DNA of 20,606 bases from a virus, in IMG/VR virus record IMGVR_UViG_3300042465_008968, positions 1 through 20,606 of that record. The stretch is one strand, 5' to 3'. The position numbers and the translations under genes are program-made. This document shows positions 1,273 to 20,606 of this stretch, one piece after another; position 1 is the first letter of the stretch; every line of letters starts with the position of its first letter. The notes beneath the pieces were generated by a model that made no database searches, had not been told where the DNA came from, and was given only the letters and a program-made list of their open reading frames with translations.

Positions 1273-1911
1273 ATGAATGTTACCATTTTAATTGATGAAT
1301 CACAGAAAACCAAATTGTTACTTGAGTCAAAAGGGACACAATTTTCCAAAATCATAGAAAAAAATTATGATTTAGTCAAAAAAGTTTTGAACGAAAGTTC
1401 GAAACAGATAAATATGGACTTAAAGTTTCTTGTGACATGGGGAGCAACGTTGGGGGGTATGATAGGTCCTATCAATGATTTTGTGAAAGGAAATTTCCAA
1501 ACAATAAATGATATCCAATTAAGTCTAATACTAACAGGGGTTATCGCCACATACTATTTTGAAAATTCAGAATTAACTCAAAAGCTATATAAAAAATTAA
1601 AAGAGGAAGGTATTTTTGGTATATTCATGAAAGTTGTTAAAAAAAGTGATGAATTAATAAACGTTTTTTTGGATTTTTTGGGGAGTTTAGGAATTACTCT
1701 ACATAAAGTCACCAACATGATAAGTTATAGTTTTTTAATTCCAGTCATACCAATGATATATGACATTTGTACAAACGAAATTGGTAGCGATAAAGAAATT
1801 TCCGAAATAATTTATAGATTTTTGAGCTTCGGGTTAGTTACCGTAACAGGTGTTTTATTGAAAGAATTAGTTCTTAAAATAGTAAAAAGGTTTAGACGTA
1901 GAGATGTTTAA
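1273..1911 (+). CDS. Multi-TM protein with capsid-targeting-like N-terminus (212 aa)
   Basis: The N-terminus MNVTILIDESQKTKLLLES resembles the other targeting-like peptides in this window and ends in L-L-E at residues 16-18, a plausible T4-type prohead protease site. The body has several hydrophobic segments: about residues 50-68 (FLVTWGATLGGMIG), 80-95 (LSLILTGVIATYYF), 133-165 (FLDFLGSLGI to FLIPVIPMIY) and 188-203. The C-terminus is basic (KIVKRFRRRDV). I infer a membrane-active protein that could be packaged and delivered with the DNA, perhaps acting at the host inner membrane. No named family is recognised. The end overlaps the convergent metallopeptidase-like gene by 4 bases. Confidence 0.75.
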   Translation: MNVTILIDESQKTKLLLESKGTQFSKIIEKNYDLVKKVLNESSKQINMDLKFLVTWGATLGGMIGPINDFVKGNFQTINDIQLSLILTGVIATYYFENSELTQKLYKKLKEEGIFGIFMKVVKKSDELINVFLDFLGSLGITLHKVTNMISYSFLIPVIPMIYDICTNEIGSDKEISEIIYRFLSFGLVTVTGVLLKELVLKIVKRFRRRDV

Positions 1912-2867
1912 TTTACTAAACCCATCAATTTTTTTATCACAATGTTTTTTTCTTTATCATTAAGTTGATGTATGTCTTCGTGTGATTCGAACCAATCTAT
2001 TATTATTTTATCTAATGGTTGTTTTCTCAGTTTTGATAACCGTTTGAATCCCGCCAACTGAGCTTCTAATTCATGTTTTTGGGTATAATATTTAAGAGGG
2101 TTTTCGGGACTCTTTCTTTTTGATAATTCTCCCCTAACTGATTGACGAGAATGCTCCAACTCATGAGCAATCACCTCGTTCAATTCCCCAATTAAATCAT
2201 ACAACGATTTATCTATATTGTTCGGATTGATAATAACAAGTACTTCTATTACATCATCTTCTTGTGAAAATTCTGCGTTTACCTTAAAGGTTTCTATTTT
2301 TTTTGAAAATTTTATTATCAATTCTATAGAGATTTCCAAAGGGAAGTTTTGAAACTCATATCCCGTCCCATATTCATTTTCAGGTAAATAAAAATTACCT
2401 GTTTTCCCTTTTTTAATAATATTGACAATATCTCTTACAATATTTCTGATTGGTACTCTTGTCATTTTTTGTTCTGTTATTGTTTTAGGTTCATCTACAA
2501 TAATAGAATCTATAAAAATTGGTTTATCTTCAAAATAACGAGTTGTATTATAAATAAAATCTTTAAGATTTTGTTGAAAGTACCAAAGATTATTTTCCAA
2601 ATAAATCGAACTTATATCTTTAGGAACTCGGGAGTTGAGACCAAAAAATAATTTCGAAATATCATTATTAACTCTAATAATTTTGATTTGTACAGATAAA
2701 TAATCTTTCCATTCTCCAACACTTATTAGTTTTTTTATACCTAAAAATTTTACTTTAAAGTCTATATCCGCATTAATCGGTACACTATATATGATAGGTC
2801 CTTTGTAGGTTAAAATTTTATCATCAAAGTATTTGTTCAGTACATTTACTATAACTTTATCATCCAT
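1908..2867 (-). CDS. HExxH metallopeptidase-like protein (319 aa)
   Basis: Near residue 235 the sequence EVIAHELEHSRQSVRGE contains a zincin HExxH motif (H235, E236, H239), followed about 30 residues later by KHELEAQLAGF, which can supply the third zinc ligand (E266 or E268). About 230 residues of mixed, probably beta-rich sequence precede it, with no signal peptide. HELEH helices are typical of phage and toxin-associated zincins. A second HExxH protein of similar layout is at 10573-11607. I chose the ATG at 2867 over the in-frame one at 2873, because the latter overlaps the CTATTTAT box that otherwise sits 4 bases upstream. Substrate unknown; a structural role without catalysis is possible. 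Confidence 0.75.
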   Translation of the reverse strand: MDDKVIVNVLNKYFDDKILTYKGPIIYSVPINADIDFKVKFLGIKKLISVGEWKDYLSVQIKIIRVNNDISKLFFGLNSRVPKDISSIYLENNLWYFQQNLKDFIYNTTRYFEDKPIFIDSIIVDEPKTITEQKMTRVPIRNIVRDIVNIIKKGKTGNFYLPENEYGTGYEFQNFPLEISIELIIKFSKKIETFKVNAEFSQEDDVIEVLVIINPNNIDKSLYDLIGELNEVIAHELEHSRQSVRGELSKRKSPENPLKYYTQKHELEAQLAGFKRLSKLRKQPLDKIIIDWFESHEDIHQLNDKEKNIVIKKLMGLVN

Positions 2868-2871
2868 GAAC

Positions 2872-2879
2872 ATAAATAG
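2872..2879 (-). promoter_or_regulatory. CTATTTAT, one-mismatch late-type box
   Basis: CTATTTAT on the minus strand, 4 bases before the ATG at 2867. It has the same short spacing as the boxes before 11607, 12814 and 16285. Confidence 0.35.
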
Positions 2880-3365: not shown

Positions 3366-4397
3366 ATGAACACAAAATTTGATTTCAAAGACATTACATT
3401 AGTTCCTGAAATAATAAGTAGCATTAATTCTAGAAACGTAATCAATATTTACGATGAAAACAATAAATTACCAATTATTGTTTCTCCTATGGACACCGTA
3501 ATAGATGAAAACAACTGTGAATTGTTTTTGAAACAAAATTTGATTGTGTGTTTACCGAGAAATGTTTTTGCTTTCGAAGGTCAGGTTTTTAATTCAGTAT
3601 CATTGGAAGATTTTGAAAAAATTGTGGAGTGGTTTGAAGATGAAAGTTTTGAAAAAGAGACTATAAATCTACTTGTCGATATTGCAAATGGTCACATGGA
3701 AAAATTGTTTCTGTTATGTGAAAAATTTGTTAAGTTCAGAAAAACTCCGTCACACAAATTAATGGTTGGAAATATCGCCAACCCTAAGACCTATCAAAAA
3801 TTTGCAGAATTAGGTGTTGATTATATCAGAGTTGGTATTGGGGGAGGAAGCGGTTGTTTAACCTCTGCTAATACAGGTGTTCATTATCCAATGGCATCCC
3901 TTATTAATGAATGTTATGAAATAAAGAAAAGAGGTGGTTATGATACAAAAATAATTGCTGATGGTGGATTTAGAAACTATGATGATGTTATCAAAGCAAT
4001 TGCTTTGGGGGCTGATTATGTAATGTTAGGAGGGGTTTTAAATAAAACTTTGGAGTCTTCATCAAAAACGAAACTTTTCAAGATGTTTAATTTATCAGAA
4101 GAGAATTCCCAATACATTTGGAATAAATTCCCAATCTTAAGAAAACATTTTTATAAAAAATTCAGGGGAATGAGTACTAAAGAAGTACAAAAAAAATGGG
4201 GTAAAACAAAATTAACCACGTCTGAAGGAATTGTCAAATACAATAAAGTAGAATACACTTTAGAAGGGTGGGTCAATAATTTCAAAGATTATCTCAAGTC
4301 CGCAATGTCTTATACTAATTCAAAAAATTTGGAAGAATTCAAAGGGTCAGAATTCGTTTTCATCACAAAAAATGCTTTGGATAGATTTCATAAATGA
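3366..4397 (+). CDS. IMP dehydrogenase / GMP reductase family enzyme without CBS domains (343 aa)
   Basis: The whole TIM-barrel signature is present: FDFKDITLVPE at the N-terminus, LPIIVSPMDTV (36-45), the catalytic loop GIGGGSGCLT with C164 as nucleophile, IIADGGFRNYDDVIKAIALGADYVMLGG (197-223), the RGMS motif (267-270) and the SEGIVKY flap region (286-292). GuaB enzymes oxidise IMP to XMP and GMP reductases convert GMP to IMP. The length without a CBS pair fits GMP reductase, but phage and short IMPDHs also lack CBS, so the direction is not settled. About 35 extra residues sit between the NAD/phosphate region and RGMS. It is the second gene of an operon with the thioesterase, and the role is nucleotide supply. 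Confidence 0.87.
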   Translation: MNTKFDFKDITLVPEIISSINSRNVINIYDENNKLPIIVSPMDTVIDENNCELFLKQNLIVCLPRNVFAFEGQVFNSVSLEDFEKIVEWFEDESFEKETINLLVDIANGHMEKLFLLCEKFVKFRKTPSHKLMVGNIANPKTYQKFAELGVDYIRVGIGGGSGCLTSANTGVHYPMASLINECYEIKKRGGYDTKIIADGGFRNYDDVIKAIALGADYVMLGGVLNKTLESSSKTKLFKMFNLSEENSQYIWNKFPILRKHFYKKFRGMSTKEVQKKWGKTKLTTSEGIVKYNKVEYTLEGWVNNFKDYLKSAMSYTNSKNLEEFKGSEFVFITKNALDRFHK

Positions 4398-5075: not shown

Positions 5076-5699
5076 TTACCAACTTCTTGATGATTTTAAT
5101 CCCAATTTTTTTCTATATCTTGAGACATTACAACTCCAATATCCTGCAGTTGTTCTATCTTTCTTTTGGTCACATTTATGACGGGCTCTGAAAGATTTTG
5201 CTCTTGCTTTACTAGCGTTTTTGATTCGTAAATTAGGGTCGCCAAACGTAACTTTTTTTATATTTCCACCAGGAGTTTTAACATATACCGCAAATTTCTT
5301 AGGTCCACCAGGTGTTCTAAATGGACTATTTAATTTGACATTTTTTCCTCTATGTTTCGCCTCAGTAATTATTTCCCAAATATCTTCTTCGTACATAGGA
5401 GCGTCTAAATAAACCTCATTACCATTCTCTAAAACTACTTTTTTTCCTAAATCCGATTCTACTAACCAAGAATCTTCTTCGTTAAGTCTCAATAAATTTT
5501 TATTGTACAATTCTCTAGCCTCATTTATTAAATCAAAATATTTTTCCGAATAAATCCTAAAAATATTTTCACTAAGACTTATCTTATTATCAAGATGATA
5601 CTCCATCTCCTTAGAAACCTTCACTTTTTCAACCAAGGACATGGGTAAATCAACATGTTCCATTAACACTTTTTTAATTATTTGGTTTAATTTTTTCAT
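5076..5699 (-). CDS. Phage protein with DUF5872-like C-terminal domain and targeting-like N-terminus (207 aa)
   Basis: Residues 120-207 have the pattern FRTPGGPKKFAVYV, then TFGDPNLRIK, then KSFRARHKCD and YWSCN. I recall this as a conserved phage module (DUF5872) found on proteins near capsid and prohead protease genes. H174, C176 and C190 could bind a metal. The first 14 residues, MKKLNQIIKKVLME, are amphipathic and end in L-M-E, like the other targeting-like peptides here. The middle region is charged helix. I infer a virion or head-associated protein. The start is the only good ATG; an ATATTTAT box lies 19 bases upstream. Confidence 0.75.
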   Translation of the reverse strand: MKKLNQIIKKVLMEHVDLPMSLVEKVKVSKEMEYHLDNKISLSENIFRIYSEKYFDLINEARELYNKNLLRLNEEDSWLVESDLGKKVVLENGNEVYLDAPMYEEDIWEIITEAKHRGKNVKLNSPFRTPGGPKKFAVYVKTPGGNIKKVTFGDPNLRIKNASKARAKSFRARHKCDQKKDRTTAGYWSCNVSRYRKKLGLKSSRSW

Positions 5700-6704: not shown

Positions 6705-7208
6705 ATGGGAATGAAATATATGAACGAATCCAAACTCAGAAAAATCATTAGAGAAAAACTTTTGTCAGAGTCTGAGATTGAACCTCAGAAAGAAAAAAAA
6801 CAAAGGTGCGTACCTGAAAACGTGATACCCTTGGATGAAATTGTAGGACCATCTGATAACTTCAAAAATTACACCAATAATCTTTATAAAAGAGAAGGGG
6901 GAATCAATGGAATGGTTGATACCATAGATATGTTAAGAACATTGAGATTACATAATATAAAAGATGGTGGTGAACATTTGTCCTACAATCTCATGAATCA
7001 TTTGAATAAATTCAGGAATAAGAATTATTTCGATGAAACAAATGGGGAATGTCTAAAATCGATGGATAAAGTTATTGAGTTGTATAAAGAAAACGAACAC
7101 GGAGAAGAATTGGTTAGAGATATCGAAAAAGTTTTAAGACACTCAGACCCAACTCCGAGAGCAAAAGAATATTTGAAAAGGTGTTTGACCTTAGTAAAAG
7201 AAAAATAA
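6705..7208 (+). CDS. Hypothetical protein with capsid-targeting-like N-terminus (167 aa)
   Basis: The N-terminus MKYMNESKLRKIIREKLLSE (from the Met at residue 3) is the clearest targeting-like peptide here: an amphipathic basic helix ending in L-S-E and followed by acidic SEIEPQ. The rest is a soluble, mostly helical protein with HSDPTPRAKEYLKRCLTLV at the C-terminus and no recognised domain. If a gp21-like prohead protease cuts after L-S-E, the mature protein would start around residue 23. I keep the ATG at 6705 because its distance from the box (17) matches other genes; 6711 is possible. I infer an internal head protein. Confidence 0.75.
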   Translation: MGMKYMNESKLRKIIREKLLSESEIEPQKEKKQRCVPENVIPLDEIVGPSDNFKNYTNNLYKREGGINGMVDTIDMLRTLRLHNIKDGGEHLSYNLMNHLNKFRNKNYFDETNGECLKSMDKVIELYKENEHGEELVRDIEKVLRHSDPTPRAKEYLKRCLTLVKEK

Positions 7209-8575: not shown

Positions 8576-10441
8576 TTAACCTTTTACTTCTTCGAAATCA
8601 ACATCTGAACCCTCGAAATTCATATCTCCCATAGGTTGATTTGATTGACTGTAAATATCTTGGGTTATTTTTTGAAACTTCAAATTAAGTTCATCCGTTA
8701 AATTTTTAACCGAATCAACGTCTTTTTTGGACAAAGATTCTTTTATTTTAGAAATTACTTCGGTAATCTCTATTTTTTGTTCTTCAGTAAGTTTTTCATC
8801 CAAATCTTTCATGGATTTTTCAACGTTGAAGACCATGGAATCCCCCATATTAAGAGTTTCAACATCTTCTTTATCTTTTTTATCCGACTCAGAGTTCATT
8901 TCCGCCTCCTTTTTCATTCGTTCAATGTCTTCTTTAGATAATCCTGATGAAGCCTCAATTCTAATATCTTGTTTTTTATTAGTTCCTTTATCCAAAGCAG
9001 TTACATTAATAATACCGTTTGCATCGATATCAAATGTCACTTCGATTTGGGGAACTCCTCTCATAGAAGAAGGGATTCCGTCTAAAAAGAATCTACCGAT
9101 GGTGCGGTTATCTTTTGCCATAGCTCTTTCTCCTTGAAGGACATGAATCTCAACAGATGGTTGATTGTCCACCGCAGTTGAGAAGATTTGGGATTTTTTA
9201 GTTGGAATTGTCGTGTTCGAATCAATTAATTTTGTAAACACTCCGCCCATCGTTTCAATACCCAAAGATAAAGGTGTAACATCCAAAAGAAGTACATCTT
9301 TAACATCTCCAGCAAGAACCCCACCTTGTATTGCCGCACCCAATGCAACAACTTCGTCAGGATTAACCCCTTTTGATGGTTCTTTACCAAAGAACTTTTT
9401 AACCGCATCTTGTATTGCAGGGATTCTAGTTGTACCACCAACTAAAATTATTTCATCTATTTCACCAATAGTTAGGTTTGAATTAGATAATGCTCTTTTA
9501 CATGGTTCAATGGTTCTTTGTACTAAACCATCAATTAATTGTTCGAATTTAGACCTTGTCAAAGTTCTAACTAAGTGTTTAGGTATACCGTCCACAGGCA
9601 TAATATAAGGTAAATTAATTTCTGTTGAGTTAGTTGATGACAATTCAATTTTTGCCTTTTCAGCAGACTCTCTCAAACGTTGTAAAGCCATTGAATCTTT
9701 CGACAAATCCAATCCATTTTCTTGTTTGAATTCATCTACCAACCAATTAATGATTGTTTGGTCAAAATCGTCACCACCCAAGTGAGTGTCCCCATCAGTA
9801 GAAAGAACCTCAAAAACCCCTCCACCTAAATCTAAAACAGATACGTCATGAGTACCACCTCCACAGTCAAAAACAACAATTTTCATGTCTTTAGACATTT
9901 TATCTAAACCATACGCCAAAGCCGCCGCAGTTGGTTCATTGATAATTCTTTTCACATTCAACCCCGCAATTTCACCAGCTTCTTTTGTTGCCTGTCTCTG
10001 AGCATCGTTAAAATATGCGGGTACTGTAATAACCGCTTCAGTTACTGTTGTCCCTAAGTAATCTTCCGCTGTCTGTTTCATCTTTTGAAGAATCATCGCA
10101 GAAATTTCTTGTGGAGAATACATTCTGTCTTCAATAGATACTCTCGGAGTGTTCCCATCACCTTTAACTACCTTATAAGGAACTATTTTAGATTCTCCTT
10201 TACTTTCTTCGAAACTAGTTCCCATGAAACGTTTTATAGAATAAACCGTTTTATCAGGATTAGTAACTGATTGCCTTTTTGCAGGGTCACCAATCTTTCT
10301 TTCACCACCATTAATGAATCCTACGATTGAGGGGGTGGTTCTTTTACCTTCACTGTTTGTAATAACTACAGGTTCTCCGTTTTCCATAACGGCTACACAT
10401 GAATTTGTGGTCCCTAAATCCACGCCTATTATTTTTCCCAT
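8576..10441 (-). CDS. dnaK: Chaperone DnaK (Hsp70), full length (621 aa)
   Basis: All Hsp70 landmarks are present: [13 protein letters not shown] at the N-terminus, [17 protein letters not shown] (140-156), [14 protein letters not shown] (165-178), the phosphate-2 loop [10 protein letters not shown] (192-201), THLGGDDFD, and [12 protein letters not shown]. The substrate domain follows with [17 protein letters not shown] and [19 protein letters not shown], then a charged helical lid ending EEVKG. It folds proteins using ATP with DnaJ and GrpE partners, neither of which is in this window. C193 and H198 replace the common Leu and Phe/Tyr of the LGGGTFD loop. The sequence is close to Bacteroidetes DnaK as I remember it, suggesting host capture. 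It is monocistronic with its own terminator. Confidence 0.97.
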
Positions 10442-10572: not shown

Positions 10573-11607
10573 TTAATCGATATCAATCGAATAAAGAGTA
10601 TTGAATTTTCTTTTCAGGTATTTTCCAGCTTTGTTGATTCTTGGTTGTAAGGTCTTCATTAACTGTAAAACATGGATTGAATTTTGAACTCTTTTGTTTG
10701 GTGTAGTTTTCAATAATTTCGATGTTTCAAAATAGTCATCCATAAACCATTTCCATAGATTTGTAAGTATAGAAATTTCGGAATCAGGATTATATATTTC
10801 AATTGATTGTCTAAGTTCATCAAATAATTTGTCCGCATTGAAATCTTCCATATGCTTAGTGGCTTTATAATACCTATGTTCTTTGAATATTTCAAAAGGA
10901 GCCCTTTCTCTAACACTGTACATTTCTTGAATCATCGCCCTCATTTCATGAGGTTCGGAATAATATACGAACAGAAGAAAATTTTTCCATATATCAAAAA
11001 TATCTCTTGGAATGTTATAATTTTTTTCTCCAGAAGTCCCCAATGAAACGTCTACATAACCTAAACCTTTTTTATTTTTTTTGAAGAATTCTAACATGTG
11101 ATTTGTTTCATGAAGAATTGTATCTCTACATTCATAAATTAATTCATTTAAACTAGACTCATCAAATTCTTTTGTAATGTAAATATAAAATTCGAATTTA
11201 GCATTTAGTGTCTCATCCAATTGTTCTTTCACATAATTTGGTAATTCTTTAGGTGGTTTCGTCAAATAAGAATCTTTAGTTGTCTTGTGTTCTATTTGTT
11301 CTGCCCCAGCAGAAGTTATAAAAGTATAACTGGAGTTTTTTTTCTCCAACACTGTTATGAAATCAATTCTTATTTCTGATATAGGAAAATCAATGAATTC
11401 GTCTATATCAGTTAACCACGCATCTTTTAACTCAGATGTAGTGATTACCACTTTCTTTTTTTCGGATTTTTTTGTTTTGATAAAATCATTTATCAATGGA
11501 GAAAGTTTATTTAAAATTATATTGGTATAAGTCACACAAACTCTACTGACACCTTTTTCTTCTTTTAATATCCCTGATACTTGATTTTCGTTTAAAATAA
11601 TTTTCAT
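10573..11607 (-). CDS. HExxH metallopeptidase-like protein with capsid-targeting-like N-terminus (344 aa)
   Basis: RDTILHETNHMLEFF contains a zincin HExxH motif (H166, E167, H170). SEPHEMRAMIQEM (217-229) can give a third ligand, E218 or E221. The N-terminus MKIILNENQVSGILKEE ends in L-K-E at residues 14-16, the predicted prohead-protease site shared by five proteins here. About 140 residues of mixed sequence precede the active site and a helical Lys-rich domain follows it. The layout parallels 1908-2867, so the two may be distant paralogues. I infer an injected protease or hydrolase; the substrate is unknown. The ATG lies 5 bases after an ATATTTAT box. Confidence 0.8.
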   Translation of the reverse strand: MKIILNENQVSGILKEEKGVSRVCVTYTNIILNKLSPLINDFIKTKKSEKKKVVITTSELKDAWLTDIDEFIDFPISEIRIDFITVLEKKNSSYTFITSAGAEQIEHKTTKDSYLTKPPKELPNYVKEQLDETLNAKFEFYIYITKEFDESSLNELIYECRDTILHETNHMLEFFKKNKKGLGYVDVSLGTSGEKNYNIPRDIFDIWKNFLLFVYYSEPHEMRAMIQEMYSVRERAPFEIFKEHRYYKATKHMEDFNADKLFDELRQSIEIYNPDSEISILTNLWKWFMDDYFETSKLLKTTPNKRVQNSIHVLQLMKTLQPRINKAGKYLKRKFNTLYSIDID

Positions 11608-11678: not shown

Positions 11679-11756
11679 ATGATTACGAAAAAAAAATTTA
11701 CGAAATAATTGTCCTCCTTTGGGAGGATTTTTTTTGCCCGTACATAAACAAATAAA
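11679..11756 (+). CDS. Possible leader peptide (25 aa)
   Basis: A 25-codon frame beginning MITKKKIYEIIVLLWEDFF runs through the terminator hairpin to a TAA just before the synthetase-like gene. A -7-like element 4 bases before the ATG is the only support. It may be a leader peptide controlling the terminator, or chance. Confidence 0.2.
11712..11735 (+). terminator. Intrinsic terminator upstream of the synthetase-like gene
   Basis: TCCTCC/GGAGGA with a 4-base loop, followed by eight T (11728-11735). It is oriented with the plus strand and sits 31 bases before the ATG at 11767. No upstream plus-strand gene needs it, so it looks like an attenuator or the end of a small RNA. Confidence 0.65.
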
Positions 11757-11766
11757 AATAAAAAAA

Positions 11767-12591
11767 ATGAAAAACACAAAAATTTACGACGAATTAGTGA
11801 TGAAGTTAAGAACCTTCTTCAAATCAAAAGGGTTCAAGGAAGTTCCTACACAATCAAGATTGTCTATTTTAGCTGCGTGTGAAAATCCTCACTCAATAAC
11901 AACCTTTGAATATCAAGGACAGGTTTGGCCGTTACCTCAGACAGGTCAAATGTGGCTAGAGTATGAACTTCTTAAAAACCCTGAATGGGACGGAGTTTTT
12001 TGTATATCAACATCATATAGACAAGAAAAAAATCCGATACCTGGCAGACATGAAATGATTTTTCCGATGTTTGAATTTGAATCCAAAGGTAAAATGTCTG
12101 ATTTATTGAAATTAGAAAAAGATTTATTAGAGTTTTTAGGGTTCGATTCACCTAAGTCATTACCTTATGAATCAATTTGTGCAGAATACAAAACCTCAAT
12201 TATAGAAGCGGAACACGAAACTAAAATGTGGAAAGAAAAAGGAGATGTGATTTCATTGGAACATTTCCCTGTCAGAACTAATCCTTTTTGGAATATGAAA
12301 CATGGTACTAATGGGATTTTCAACAAAGTTGATGTTATCCTTTTCGGACAAGAAACAATTGGGTCTGCAGAAAGGAGTTGTGACAAAGATGAAATGAAAA
12401 AAATGTTCTATACAATAGAAGACGGAAAATATTCAGAAAAACTATTTGAATTGTTCGGTAAAGATAGAGTCGAAAAAGAACTCGAAGAATTTTTGTCTAT
12501 GGATTTTTTCCCTAGATACGGGGGAGGAATTGGTCTCACAAGATTATCAAGGGCATACGAGTTGAATAATTCTGAAGTTGGAGTATTTTAA
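11767..12591 (+). CDS. Class II aminoacyl-tRNA synthetase-like catalytic core, AsnRS/AspRS type (274 aa)
   Basis: Motif 2 is visible as FCISTSYRQE (78-87) leading to GRHEMIFPMFEFE (93-105). Before motif 3, FGQETIGSAERSC resembles the G-x-x-I-G-G-S-x-R region of AsnRS/AspRS. Motif 3 is GGGIGLTRLSRA (252-263), with R259 as the ATP-binding Arg. There is no N-terminal OB anticodon-binding domain, so it is not a normal tRNA synthetase. Such cores can act as amide synthetases (archaeal AsnA-like) or protein modifiers (EpmA-like). The start at 11719 would lie inside the terminator; the ATG at 11767 follows an A-run and starts the conserved sequence. Confidence 0.82.
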   Translation: MKNTKIYDELVMKLRTFFKSKGFKEVPTQSRLSILAACENPHSITTFEYQGQVWPLPQTGQMWLEYELLKNPEWDGVFCISTSYRQEKNPIPGRHEMIFPMFEFESKGKMSDLLKLEKDLLEFLGFDSPKSLPYESICAEYKTSIIEAEHETKMWKEKGDVISLEHFPVRTNPFWNMKHGTNGIFNKVDVILFGQETIGSAERSCDKDEMKKMFYTIEDGKYSEKLFELFGKDRVEKELEEFLSMDFFPRYGGGIGLTRLSRAYELNNSEVGVF

Positions 12592-12612: not shown

Positions 12613-12792
12613 ATGTCTAAGAAAAAAGAAGAAATAGTCCACAGAAAATGGGAACATCGATTTGAAGATGAAAATACTATATCTATTTGGAGGTATAATA
12701 GTAAAAAAAGTATGATAAACCCTTACGAGGTTGAGACAATCTACAAAAATGACAAACCGAATAAAGGAAAAAAAAAGGGTGGCACCAAGTAA
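12613..12792 (+). CDS. Small basic hypothetical protein (59 aa)
   Basis: A 59-codon gene beginning MSKKKEEIVHRKWEHRFEDE and ending KGKKKGGTK. It has aromatic residues and charged ends but no TM segment or named domain. It starts 21 bases after the synthetase-like gene and probably shares its message, or uses the -7-like element just upstream. The stop codon lies in the loop of the terminator hairpin that follows. Confidence 0.65.
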   Translation: MSKKKEEIVHRKWEHRFEDENTISIWRYNSKKSMINPYEVETIYKNDKPNKGKKKGGTK

Positions 12793-12801
12793 CCACCCTT
12801 T
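12774..12801 (+). terminator. Terminator hairpin overlapping the end of the 59-aa gene
   Basis: AAAGGGTGG/CCACCCTTT is a perfect 9-bp stem with a 10-base loop that contains the TAA stop. The T-tail is short and A/T mixed, so termination may be partial. Confidence 0.6.
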
Positions 12802-12809
12802 ATATTTAT
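12802..12809 (+). promoter_or_regulatory. ATATTTAT late-type box, short spacing
   Basis: An exact ATATTTAT, 4 bases before the ATG at 12814. It directly abuts the terminator stem. Confidence 0.5.
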
Positions 12810-12813
12810 TTAT

Positions 12814-13239
12814 ATGAAATTAATTCGATTATTACAAGAATCCATCGACAAGAAGGAAATGATGAAACATTTTCAAACGATGGGTATTGATAAAGATGAA
12901 GCGGAGGAACAATTAGAAAATATACTGTATCATATCAAAAATCTTCCTGACCCAGTAAAGCTTTATCGAATATTGATGGTAGACAATGAAGAAAATATAA
13001 ATACTGAAGAATTGGGGTCGCACTATTCCACAAATAAAATGGAATTATTGTCATCACATAGTTACTTGACAGGTTCAGGTGAAAAATATTTTTTAGTCAC
13101 CGTACTTTCCCCAAAAAAATTAATTGACCTTAATGAGACTGTTATTAACAACATTCTCTATCCCAATGAAAATGAAGTTACTCTAAAGAAAAAAGGTAAA
13201 GGCGTAAAAATTCATTCAATAAGAAAAATTGGAAAGTAA
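12814..13239 (+). CDS. Candidate ADP-ribosyltransferase with capsid-targeting-like N-terminus (141 aa)
   Basis: The order of motifs fits the R-S-E class of ADP-ribosyltransferases: KLYRIL with R52 on the first strand, SHYSTN with S72-T73, and YPNENEVTL with the E119-x-E121 pair, followed by GVKIHSIRKI, a typical closing strand. Such enzymes transfer ADP-ribose from NAD to proteins; T4 Alt and ModA act on host RNA polymerase. The N-terminus MKLIRLLQES is basic and amphipathic and ends in L-Q-E (7-9), a predicted prohead-protease site, so it may be packaged and injected like T4 Alt. The small size and weak STS match leave room for a non-catalytic protein. Confidence 0.6.
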   Translation: MKLIRLLQESIDKKEMMKHFQTMGIDKDEAEEQLENILYHIKNLPDPVKLYRILMVDNEENINTEELGSHYSTNKMELLSSHSYLTGSGEKYFLVTVLSPKKLIDLNETVINNILYPNENEVTLKKKGKGVKIHSIRKIGK

Positions 13240-13554: not shown

Positions 13555-14234
13555 CATTCCTCTTTTTTTTCAGAAGCGTATTTAACACCCATTATAGTAC
13601 CTATAATACTAAAGGCGTTAGTCAGTAAAATACCAAACATATTTGACCAAGTAGAACCTATGATTTGAGTGTCTTTATCTGTAAACATTGCAATAATGTA
13701 AAGGATGGTAGTTATGACACCAACCCCAATGATAACAAATAAAGCAACTTTTACAATTTTACCAATTAATTCGGTTTGAGTTTTTTTCTGCAACAAATCT
13801 AAATCTGTCAAAGCAATTGTTTTCGCTTGTTCAGCTTCAATTCTCGCGTTTTCGGATTTCAACATTTCGGTTTGTAAATCTTTTGTCAACCTTTCATTAT
13901 CTTCTTTCCACTCGACTAATTCTTTATTTTGTACTTCATAAGTTATTTTTGAATCCTCAACCTCTTTTAGGGTTTGTTGTAACTCTTTCATGATTCGTTC
14001 ATTTTCAGAATTCAACTTTGTCAATTCGTTGTTTTTAGTTTGGACTTGCTTAGTAATTTCGAGACGTTTTTTTCTTTTGTCAGAATCTTTTGTCTCACAT
14101 TCTTTTAAATACTTTTTGAAGTCTTCGTCATCTTCTCCATCAATAAGTTTAGTGATATTACCTTCAAGACTTATACCTTTTTTAAGGTATAAGTCCATCA
14201 AGATTTTTTTAGTATCACTATCTATTTTTATCAT
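13554..14234 (-). CDS. Coiled-coil protein with two C-terminal TM segments (226 aa)
   Basis: Residues 50-155 are a long Glu/Lys-rich heptad region (NNELTKLNSENERIMKELQ and onward). Two hydrophobic segments follow, about 161-183 (VKVALFVIIGVGVITTILYI) and 196-219, with a short charged tail. It is a tail-anchored membrane protein with a long cytoplasmic or periplasmic rod, and no family is recognised. Its ATG overlaps the stop of the response regulator (ATGA), so translation is coupled. It is probably the third gene of the sensor operon and could be the membrane target or effector of that pathway. A spanin-like or structural role is an alternative. Confidence 0.72.
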   Translation of the reverse strand: MIKIDSDTKKILMDLYLKKGISLEGNITKLIDGEDDEDFKKYLKECETKDSDKRKKRLEITKQVQTKNNELTKLNSENERIMKELQQTLKEVEDSKITYEVQNKELVEWKEDNERLTKDLQTEMLKSENARIEAEQAKTIALTDLDLLQKKTQTELIGKIVKVALFVIIGVGVITTILYIIAMFTDKDTQIIGSTWSNMFGILLTNAFSIIGTIMGVKYASEKKEE

Positions 14235-14668
14235 TTGTATACTTTGAATGGTAATGTTCTATTTTTATAACCATCATAATCATTTCTAAATTCTACTAAA
14301 CGTGGTTCGATATCGTCAGATTTAATAATCCAAAATTGAGCACCCGCTTGAATTGCCTTAGCTTGTTCTTCAGATTCATTACTTGACGAAATAATTCCAA
14401 CAACTACGTGATTACCATATTCAAAATTAATTTTTCTAATTAATTCTATACCATCAAAAGAACTACCAATGATGTTTAAATCAACAAACACACAATCAGG
14501 TTTATCATTATCACCCCCGCTTTGGAACCATTTTTCGAATTTCTTTGCCGCTTCGTCAGAACTATTTAACGCATTTAAAGACAAACTTATGTCAAGTAAC
14601 GAACAAGCGTCCTCAAACACTAAATGGAATAAGTCCTCATCATCCACTAATAAAATTGAATCAATCAT
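14231..14668 (-). CDS. Single-domain response regulator (145 aa)
   Basis: A receiver domain with the acidic pair D9-D10, the phospho-acceptor D63 in CVFVDLN, the switch Ser in GIISSSN (94-96) and the conserved K116 in FWIIKS. There is no DNA-binding or enzymatic output domain, as in CheY-type regulators, so it probably acts by protein contact. It lies 18 bases downstream of the histidine kinase gene and overlaps the coiled-coil gene, which suggests a phosphorelay from the kinase to a membrane partner. The fold assignment is secure; the output is not known. Confidence 0.9.
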   Translation of the reverse strand: MIDSILLVDDEDLFHLVFEDACSLLDISLSLNALNSSDEAAKKFEKWFQSGGDNDKPDCVFVDLNIIGSSFDGIELIRKINFEYGNHVVVGIISSSNESEEQAKAIQAGAQFWIIKSDDIEPRLVEFRNDYDGYKNRTLPFKVYK

Positions 14669-14686
14669 TTTTTCTTTTTTTGTATT

Positions 14687-16285
14687 TTATTTTATTTTTA
14701 TTTTCATTTTTGTACCTATCTCATTTTTCTCACAGGTAATATTAAACCCGTGTTCTTCCAAAATTGCCACACAAATATTTAAACCCAACCCAGAACCTGA
14801 TTCTTTTTGACCTTCTTTTCTTGTGTATGGTTTACATAGGTGATTAAAATCTTGTTGTGTAATTCCTCTACCGTTATCTTGAATGTGGACGCTATTCTCA
14901 TCAGAATAAATTTTAACAAACTTAGTATCTGAATCATTATATTTTAATCCATTTCTAATTAGGTTGTCGACCGCAGTACAGAATAAAGCTTCGTTTACCT
15001 CTATAGTTGGTAAATCCTCAATAATAACTTGACTACTGTATGCCGTTGATGACAAATAATCATTAAGTATGGTTTTTAAATTACATTCTGTCTTATTTAA
15101 GACAACGTCCTTTTTAACTAAATTGGTAAACTCATAAACCCCTTTGTAAACTTTTTGAGAATGTTTCAACCCTTCTTTAATCATTCTAATAGGTGCATCA
15201 ATTTTTAATGATATAATGTCGTCAGGACTTAATCTTCTTTCTAATGAACTTAACCCTCTTGGCATATATGTGTTAATACCTGAGTGCATATCATGTCTTA
15301 ATATCTTAGCGGCATGTTCTAAATAAGTGTTTTTCTTTTCAATCTCTTTTCTTTGTTCATACGAATCGGATACGTCTGTCGCAATTTTCATAACACGATA
15401 AATTTTACCGTCCACACCAAGAATAGGATTGTAGGTTGCTTGTAGATATACTAAAGAACCGTCCTTTTTAACTCTAGTAATTTCACCTGTAAATAATATA
15501 CCCTCATTTAATTTTTTCCAAAAAAGAGAATATTCCTCACTTTTTGAATGTTCCTCATCTATAAATATTCTATGGTGTTTCCCAACTATTTCATCCTGTG
15601 ATGAATACCCCATAGTATTTAAAAATAATTCATTAGCGAAAATAATCCTCCCTTCTAAATCAAACTCAATAACCGCATTAGATTTATTTATAGCGTTCAT
15701 TCTATTACGAATTTCTACTTCTTTTCTTTTAAGTTCTGTAACATCTTGTCTAATTGACGAAAACCCTTCTAATTTACCGTTCTTGTCGAATTTTGCTTTA
15801 ATGTACGTATCAACATAATACAATTCTCCTGTTTTTGTTTTATTGGTAACAACATCATTCCATATCTCACCTTTCATTACTTTTTCATACATCTTACCCC
15901 AATATCCATCAGGTTGTAATCCTGAGTTTACAATAACATGGTCCTTACCTTTAACTTCATCTAAAGACCAACCTGAAACTTCCTCAAATTTCTTATTAAC
16001 GTATGTAATCTTACCGTACTTATCAGCAACAGAAACAATTGTTGCGGAATCAATGAACTCTTCACTATCTTTAATTTGTTTTAATAAACCACTTTTCAAG
16101 TCCACATTTTGTTTTTTCATTAAAAAATAAAATAATGGTGAAAATGTTAAAAAACAAAACATTTCGATAAGTCTTGTGATGTCACTATGACTAATTATTT
16201 TTAATAAAATTAACATTTTAATTAATAAAAATATAACCATCAAAGATATTGAGGTATATAATAGTTTTTTACGTGAGTTTGTCAT
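14687..16285 (-). CDS. Membrane histidine kinase with two PAS domains (532 aa)
   Basis: Two N-terminal TM segments (about residues 7-30 and 40-56) are separated by a very short loop. PAS 1 (about 70-185: ITYVNKKFEEVSGW ... FSSIRQDVTELK) and PAS 2 (about 195-312: IIFANELFLNTMGY ... VMKIATDVSDS) follow. The H-box ILRHDMHSGI has H331, then come the N-box DNLIRNGLKYN (N441), the G1 box QDNGRGI and the G2 box GSGLGLNI (497-504). It would autophosphorylate and pass phosphate to the adjacent receiver. The TTG at 16303 is in frame, but an ATATTTAT box 4 bases before the ATG at 16285 favours the latter. Short TM hairpins suggest sensing inside the membrane or cytoplasm. Confidence 0.93.
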   Translation of the reverse strand: MTNSRKKLLYTSISLMVIFLLIKMLILLKIISHSDITRLIEMFCFLTFSPLFYFLMKKQNVDLKSGLLKQIKDSEEFIDSATIVSVADKYGKITYVNKKFEEVSGWSLDEVKGKDHVIVNSGLQPDGYWGKMYEKVMKGEIWNDVVTNKTKTGELYYVDTYIKAKFDKNGKLEGFSSIRQDVTELKRKEVEIRNRMNAINKSNAVIEFDLEGRIIFANELFLNTMGYSSQDEIVGKHHRIFIDEEHSKSEEYSLFWKKLNEGILFTGEITRVKKDGSLVYLQATYNPILGVDGKIYRVMKIATDVSDSYEQRKEIEKKNTYLEHAAKILRHDMHSGINTYMPRGLSSLERRLSPDDIISLKIDAPIRMIKEGLKHSQKVYKGVYEFTNLVKKDVVLNKTECNLKTILNDYLSSTAYSSQVIIEDLPTIEVNEALFCTAVDNLIRNGLKYNDSDTKFVKIYSDENSVHIQDNGRGITQQDFNHLCKPYTRKEGQKESGSGLGLNICVAILEEHGFNITCEKNEIGTKMKIKIK

Positions 16286-16289
16286 CACA

Positions 16290-16297
16290 ATAAATAT
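16290..16297 (-). promoter_or_regulatory. ATATTTAT late-type box, short spacing
   Basis: An exact ATATTTAT on the minus strand, 4 bases before the ATG at 16285. It drives the kinase, regulator and coiled-coil operon if it is a promoter. Confidence 0.45.
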
Positions 16298-16327
16298 TAA
16301 CAAACTATTGACTTTTCAACATGAATA

Positions 16328-20418: not shown

Positions 20419-20606
20419 ATGAAAAAAGTAGAAAACGGAAAAACAGTAAAACTCAATTATACGGGTCGTTTGGAAGACGGGTCTGTATTTGATTCATCTC
20501 TAAACGAAGGAAGAGAACCATTAACAACAACATTGGGACAAGGACAATTAATCAAAGGATTTGAATCTGGTCTAATTGGAATGTCGGAAGGTGAAAGAAA
20601 AACAAT
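20419..20606 (+). CDS. FKBP-type peptidyl-prolyl isomerase, N-terminal part
   Basis: The 62 visible codons read MKKVENGKTVKLNYTGRLED, then GSVFDSSLNEGREPLTTTLG, then QGQLIKGFESGLIGMSEGER. This is the FKBP signature: Y-T-G-R-L-E-D-G-x-x-F-D-S-S, and G-x-G-x-L-I-x-G-F-E-x-G-L-x-G-M. The visible layout fits either SlyD-like or short FKBP forms; the gene runs off the right edge, so this cannot be decided. Such enzymes speed cis-trans isomerisation of proline bonds. With DnaK it adds a second folding factor in the window. The ATG follows an A-rich leader with TATAATTTATA about 13 bases upstream. Confidence 0.9.
   Translation, partial: MKKVENGKTVKLNYTGRLEDGSVFDSSLNEGREPLTTTLGQGQLIKGFESGLIGMSEGERKT

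What the first reader, a model, noticed from the sequence alone, without database searches (positions are those of the whole stretch)
12814..13239. Possible Alt-like packaged ADP-ribosyltransferase of only 141 residues
R52, S72-T73 and E119-x-E121 appear in the order and context of R-S-E ADP-ribosyltransferases, and the protein starts with a targeting-like peptide. T4 Alt has the same combination (head-packaged, protease-processed, ART activity on host RNA polymerase). A minimal version from a Bacteroidetes phage would be new to me.
Basis: inference. Interest (0 to 1): 0.78.

Follow-up and report, generated by a model that had tools for sequence, protein, structure and literature searches.

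The report
Tiny capsid-targeted phage ADP-ribosyltransferase family
A 141-residue protein of an uncultured T4-like phage looks like a very small ADP-ribosyltransferase with a tag for loading into the virus head, probably injected to modify host proteins as T4 Alt is, and it belongs to a family that no database searched here has named.

Summary
The ORF is real (window 12814-13239, +, 141 aa) and conserved: 38 diverse relatives from uncultured phage contigs keep R52, G68, H70, P117, E119, E121, T123 and G128 in every row. Confident AlphaFold models of two members (pLDDT 87.9, 87.3) match ADP-ribosyltransferases (ARTs) almost exclusively (top 24 and top 26 PDB hits). Profile comparison with T4 ModA/ModB beats all 300 column-shuffled controls.

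Packaging is supported by inference. The N-terminus MKLIRLLQE|S carries the T4 prohead-protease motif [LI]xE at residues 7-9; 18 of 19 close relatives keep it. Relatives' contigs encode the gp21-type protease (11 of 15) and Gp23 capsid protein (9 of 15). An RTATTTAT element 12-14 nt before these ART genes also precedes the protease genes. Some relatives fuse the ART to a capsid-tagged membrane protein whose homologue sits separately in this window, or to ART-PolyVal.

Corrections: S72-T73 is not a family motif (S72 in 24 of 38); the invariant strand-2 residue is H70. Membership in the Alt family is not shown; ModA/ModB are the closest named proteins. Host, activity, target and presence in virions are untested. 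Best reading: a new, minimal, capsid-targeted ART family, a new variant of a known kind.

The parts
12814..13239 (+). Small ADP-ribosyltransferase-fold protein, 141 aa (P0001)
   Evidence: ORF; family alignments; AF2 models; Foldseek
12814..12840 (+). Predicted capsid-targeting propeptide MKLIRLLQE (residues 1-9); cleavage predicted after E9
   Evidence: [LI]xE at residues 7-9 in 18 of 19 relatives of this subgroup; residues 1-10 low confidence in both models (mean pLDDT 65 and 47); T4 gp21 cleaves after L/I-x-E (PMC9026906)
12967..12969 (+). R52 codon, predicted NAD-binding arginine of strand 1 (LYR)
   Evidence: invariant 38/38; aligned with the LYR/LWR arginine of ModA/ModB
13021..13029 (+). 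H70-Y71-S72 codons, strand 2
   Evidence: H70 38/38, Y/F71 38/38, S72 only 24/38
13162..13176 (+). P117-N-E-N-E121: ExE motif at the start of a late core strand, predicted catalytic glutamate E121
   Evidence: P117, E119 and E121 invariant 38/38; strand 121-124 in the model
12802..12809 (+). ATATTTAT element 12 nt before the ATG, late-promoter-like (inferred)
   Evidence: RTATTTAT at -12 to -14 in all 19 relatives of the subgroup; same element upstream of the prohead-protease genes of relatives; 20 copies in the window against 6.9 expected
12774..12801 (+). GC-rich hairpin between the tRNA-synthetase-like gene and the ART gene, possible terminator
   Evidence: fold -13.2 kcal/mol, z -2.4; similar hairpins at the same place in L011 and L012
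1273..1911 (+). Capsid-tagged membrane-type protein (N-term MNVTILIDESQKTKLLLE|S); its homologue is fused to the ART domain in other phages
   Evidence: phmmer E 1.5e-8 (L075) and 3.2e-6 (L060), second-round E down to 3e-49; BLASTP E 2e-6

Best explanation
The gene encodes a minimal mono-ADP-ribosyltransferase made late, carried into the prohead core by its N-terminal tag and trimmed after E9 by the phage's gp21-type protease. It is then ejected with the DNA and transfers ADP-ribose from NAD+ to one or more host proteins in the first minutes of infection. Shown by computation: conserved family, ART fold, invariant R and ExE, conserved tag, presence of the protease and capsid genes in relatives, association with a late-type upstream element. 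Inferred: catalysis, packaging, ejection. The target is unknown. The ExE pair makes arginine the most likely acceptor residue, and RNA polymerase or translation proteins are guesses by analogy with Alt, ModA and ModB.
For: Two independent confident models with ART-only top PDB hits. Invariant R52/E119/E121. Profile score 29.4 against ModA/ModB, maximum 21.8 in 300 shuffles. [LI]xE at residues 7-9 in 18 of 19 relatives. Peptidase_S77 in 11 of 15 and Gp23 in 9 of 15 contigs. RTATTTAT before both ART and protease genes. Fusions with a capsid-tagged membrane protein, a DHH-like protein and ART-PolyVal. T4 precedent: first 10 residues of IPIII suffice for targeting, gp21 cuts after L/I-x-E, Alt loses 7 residues (PMC9026906); ModB R73A abolishes activity (PMC10468400).
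Against: No PDB Foldseek hit has E below 0.05 and TM-scores are about 0.5. No sequence-profile hit to a solved ART is significant. S72 is lost in 14 of 38. Nine of 35 standalone members lack [LI]xE in the first 20 residues (for example L025, L059, L080, L109, L166), so packaging is not universal. [LI]xE occurs in the first 20 residues of about 26% of other genes that lack the upstream element (46 of 178). No proteomics exists for these phages.
Confidence: 0.66

Rival explanations
1. It is an active ART but is not packaged: like ModA/ModB it is made inside the infected cell and acts there, for example to switch transcription late or to block defence systems or superinfection. The N-terminal peptide is then just a hydrophobic start.
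For: Closest named relatives by profile are ModA/ModB, which are not packaged (PMC5512222). Some standalone members lack the tag.
Against: [LI]xE at a fixed position in 18 of 19 relatives while the following residues vary; the tag sits at the N-terminus of 10 of 12 fusion proteins rather than at the ART domain; the same contigs carry the matching protease.
Confidence: 0.17
2. An ART-fold protein that uses NAD+ differently: an NAD+ glycohydrolase, a nucleic-acid-modifying ART, or an RNA-attaching enzyme like ModB.
For: H70 is invariant while S72 varies, so the active site is not the textbook R-S-E; ModB shows that phage ARTs can use NAD-capped RNA (PMC10468400).
Against: The ExE pair is invariant (38/38), which fits protein-arginine transfer.
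Confidence: 0.12
3. A structural or scaffolding head protein that keeps a degenerate, inactive ART fold.
For: Capsid tag; S72 substituted in many members.
Against: Strict conservation of R52, E119 and E121, the residues that an inactive relative would be free to lose.
Confidence: 0.05

Closest known systems
T4 Alt (packaged, protease-processed ART)
   Same: Short N-terminal propeptide (T4 Alt starts MELITELFDE in the record read here) removed by the prohead protease, T4-type capsid and protease, predicted early delivery
   Different: Alt is 682 aa against 141; no significant similarity to Alt found: adding Alt to the ModA/ModB profile removed the signal
T4 ModA and ModB (R-S-ExE ARTs)
   Same: Marginal but above-control profile similarity; LYR and ExE align; the only named hits in tblastn of 50,697 phages, E 4-8
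   Different: About 200 aa, not packaged, catalytic serine; 21-29% identity
ART-PolyVal (PF18760) and polyvalent proteins
   Same: ART domains in predicted injected phage proteins; one relative (L172) is ART-PolyVal fused to this domain (E 3e-9)
   Different: PF18760 does not match this domain; polyvalent ARTs have an H-Y-D site (PMC5512222)
Cholera-toxin-type R-S-E ARTs (fold comparison only)
   Same: Best PDB fold matches, probability up to 0.99, TM about 0.5
   Different: 11-16% identity, larger domain, different biology

Membership tests
ART superfamily | ART fold (split beta-sandwich around the NAD+ cleft) | tested here: met
   Two AF2 models, pLDDT 87.9 and 87.3; top 24 and top 26 PDB Foldseek hits are ARTs, though individual E-values are 0.05-1.4
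ART superfamily | NAD+ binding and ADP-ribosyl transfer | not testable with these tools
   Needs an assay
R-S-E clade of ARTs | Strand-1 Arg and ExE/QxE glutamate | tested here: met
   R52, E119, E121 38/38
R-S-E clade of ARTs | Strand-2 Ser-Thr-Ser motif | tested here: not met
   S72 24/38, T73 8/38; this protein has S72-T73-N74; H70 invariant
R-S-E clade of ARTs | Arg and Glu converge on one pocket | not testable with these tools
T4 Alt family | Sequence homology to the Alt catalytic domain | tested here: not met
   hhalign with Alt in the profile P 0.059; no hit in the T4 genome with profile A8
T4 Alt family | N-terminal capsid-targeting propeptide with [LI]xE cleavage site | tested here: met
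   [LI]xE at residues 7-9 in 18 of 19 relatives; rule from PMC9026906
T4 Alt family | Present in virions and injected | not testable with these tools
   Needs proteomics
ModA/ModB family | Significant profile similarity | tested here: inconclusive
   Score 29.4 against 21.8 maximum in 300 shuffles, but HH probability 26%
ART-PolyVal PF18760 | Pfam match | tested here: not met
   No match in 23 members scanned

The most novel reading that the evidence does not exclude
A new ART clade with an R-H-ExE active site, spread through uncultured large T4-like phages and delivered as interchangeable parts: sometimes as separate capsid-tagged proteins, sometimes as a polyprotein (membrane protein-ART, DHH-like-ART, ART-ART) that the prohead protease cuts at internal [LI]xE sites inside the head.
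Probability: 0.35. Interest if true: 0.75.

Novelty: new variant of a known kind. Interest (0 to 1): 0.6.

Why it matters
T4 Alt is the model for ARTs injected from a phage head. A much smaller, unannotated family with a recognisable capsid tag would show that this mode of attack is widespread in large uncultured phages. It would give a compact enzyme for study, and the tag rule gives a way to list the other injected proteins of these phages from sequence alone. The invariant His in place of a conserved Ser would also be a useful test of how ART active sites vary.

Tried and rejected
Pfam, PHROGs, NCBIfam and PADLOC gave no usable match. Sequence-profile searches of the PDB gave only chance hits. 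No relative in bacterial and archaeal genomes by pattern scan or in 50,697 phage records by tblastn with three other members. Profile search of Tenacibaculum phage PTm1 and Flavobacterium phage immuto found nothing, so the BFVD fold hit to a PTm1 protein was not confirmed by sequence. ART-PolyVal occurs in only 1 of 20 records searched, so that fusion is rare. An ordinary sigma-70 promoter is not supported: hits are at the chance level. The reverse-strand reading of the ORF is full of stops. A chance origin of the motif was rejected because of the conserved family.

Full report
Observation. The ORF at 12814-13239 (+) starts with ATG and encodes 141 residues. It has no match in PHROGs, NCBIfam or PADLOC and only a chance-level one in Pfam. 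In 50,697 phage records the only tblastn hits, all non-significant (E 4-8), lie in T4-like phages, and those annotated as more than hypothetical are ModA-type RNA polymerase ADP-ribosylases.

Family. Iterated scans of IMG/VR found 7, then 19, 33, 53 and 79 loci encoding relatives. A 38-row alignment shows L44, R52, G68, H70, L78, P117, E119, E121, T123 and G128 invariant. No relative turned up in bacterial or archaeal genomes by pattern scan.

Fold. AlphaFold with 23 sequences gave pLDDT 87.9 for this protein. A different member, from a 261-kb contig, gave 87.3 with the same order of core elements. Each E-value is weak (best 0.051, probability 0.99, TM about 0.5); the case rests on their agreement. 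In the viral library three unnamed phage proteins match with E below 0.001.

Profile test. hhalign of the family against ten ModA/ModB proteins scored 29.4 (P 7e-4). None of 150 shuffles of either side exceeded 21.8, and the reversed profile scored 15.7. R52 aligns with the LYR/LWR arginine and, in a global alignment, E119-E121 with the ExE of ModA. In ModB that arginine, R73, is essential (PMC10468400). Adding full-length Alt to the profile removed the signal, so homology to Alt in particular is not shown.

Active site. S72 is Ser in 24 of 38 rows, otherwise Val, Ala or Gly; T73 is Thr in 8. H70 is always His and residue 71 always Tyr or Phe. 'R-S-E' therefore fits this protein but not its family; R-H-ExE is the family signature. 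Whether H70 takes over the serine's role is an inference.

Packaging. T4 prohead protease cuts after L/I-x-E, and the first ten residues of IPIII suffice for targeting (PMC9026906). This protein begins MKLIRLLQE|S. Of 19 standalone relatives of the same subgroup (this protein included), 18 have [LI]xE at residues 7-9; the exception, L066, has LGQ. Some of these 19 are close to each other, so they are not 19 independent cases. Across all 35 standalone members 26 have [LI]xE in the first 20 residues, and 10 of 12 fusion proteins do at their own N-terminus. The motif alone is not rare: 46 of 178 other genes without the upstream element have it. Its fixed position is what carries weight. Relatives' contigs encode the T4-type protease (11 of 15) and Gp23 (9 of 15). 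The named records closest to their capsid protein are an uncultured 484-kb phage, a Microcystis phage and Flavobacterium phages, so the host is open.

Regulation. RTATTTAT lies 12-14 nt before the start codon in all 19 subgroup members. The same element precedes the protease genes of relatives but not their capsid genes. It is enriched in the window (20 against 6.9 expected), and genes that carry it more often have [LI]xE near the N-terminus (33 of 67 against 46 of 178, P 7e-4; related genes are counted separately, so P is optimistic). I read it as a late promoter; its orientation is the reverse of the T4 late promoter TATAAATA (own knowledge, not tested here). A hairpin separates the gene from the upstream synthetase-like gene.

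Fusions. In L060, L075, L077, L079 and L162 the ART domain follows a homologue of the window's own tagged membrane-type protein at 1273-1911. In L006 it follows a protein with a sub-threshold DHH match, and in L172 an ART-PolyVal domain (E 3e-9). Linkers before the ART often contain [LI]xE, for example LIKE|S in L060 and LDE|S in L075. This suggests, without proof, that such proteins are cut inside the head.

Conclusion. It is best called a new ART family that works like Alt, not a member of the Alt family. Catalysis, packaging and target remain to be shown.

Noticed in passing
10573-11607 (-): Capsid-tag-like N-terminus MKIILNENQVSGILKE and an HExxH motif (HETNH): possible packaged metalloprotease; homologues lie next to the ART gene in many relatives.
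   Followed up: partly
1908-2873 (-): Second protein with an HExxH motif (HELEH), also present in L001.
   Followed up: no
14231-16303 (-): Response regulator and PAS-type histidine kinase encoded side by side on a phage.
   Followed up: no
11719-12591 (+): Class II tRNA-synthetase-type catalytic core in a 290-aa ORF, directly upstream of the ART gene here and in L001, L002 and L005.
   Followed up: partly
12802-12809 and 19 other sites: RTATTTAT element, enriched in the window, upstream of tagged genes and, in relatives, of protease genes; opposite in orientation to the T4 late promoter.
   Followed up: partly
5076-5699 (-), 6705-7208 (+): Two more proteins with N-termini ending in [LI]xE and the upstream element; further candidates for packaged proteins.
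   Followed up: no
8576-10441 (-), 3366-4397 (+), 20419-20606 (+): Phage DnaK-like chaperone (sequence only), IMP dehydrogenase/GMP reductase domain and FKBP-type isomerase.
   Followed up: no
L139:1274-4390: 1039-aa protein with repeated segments and the ART domain at its C-terminus; no Pfam match.
   Followed up: no
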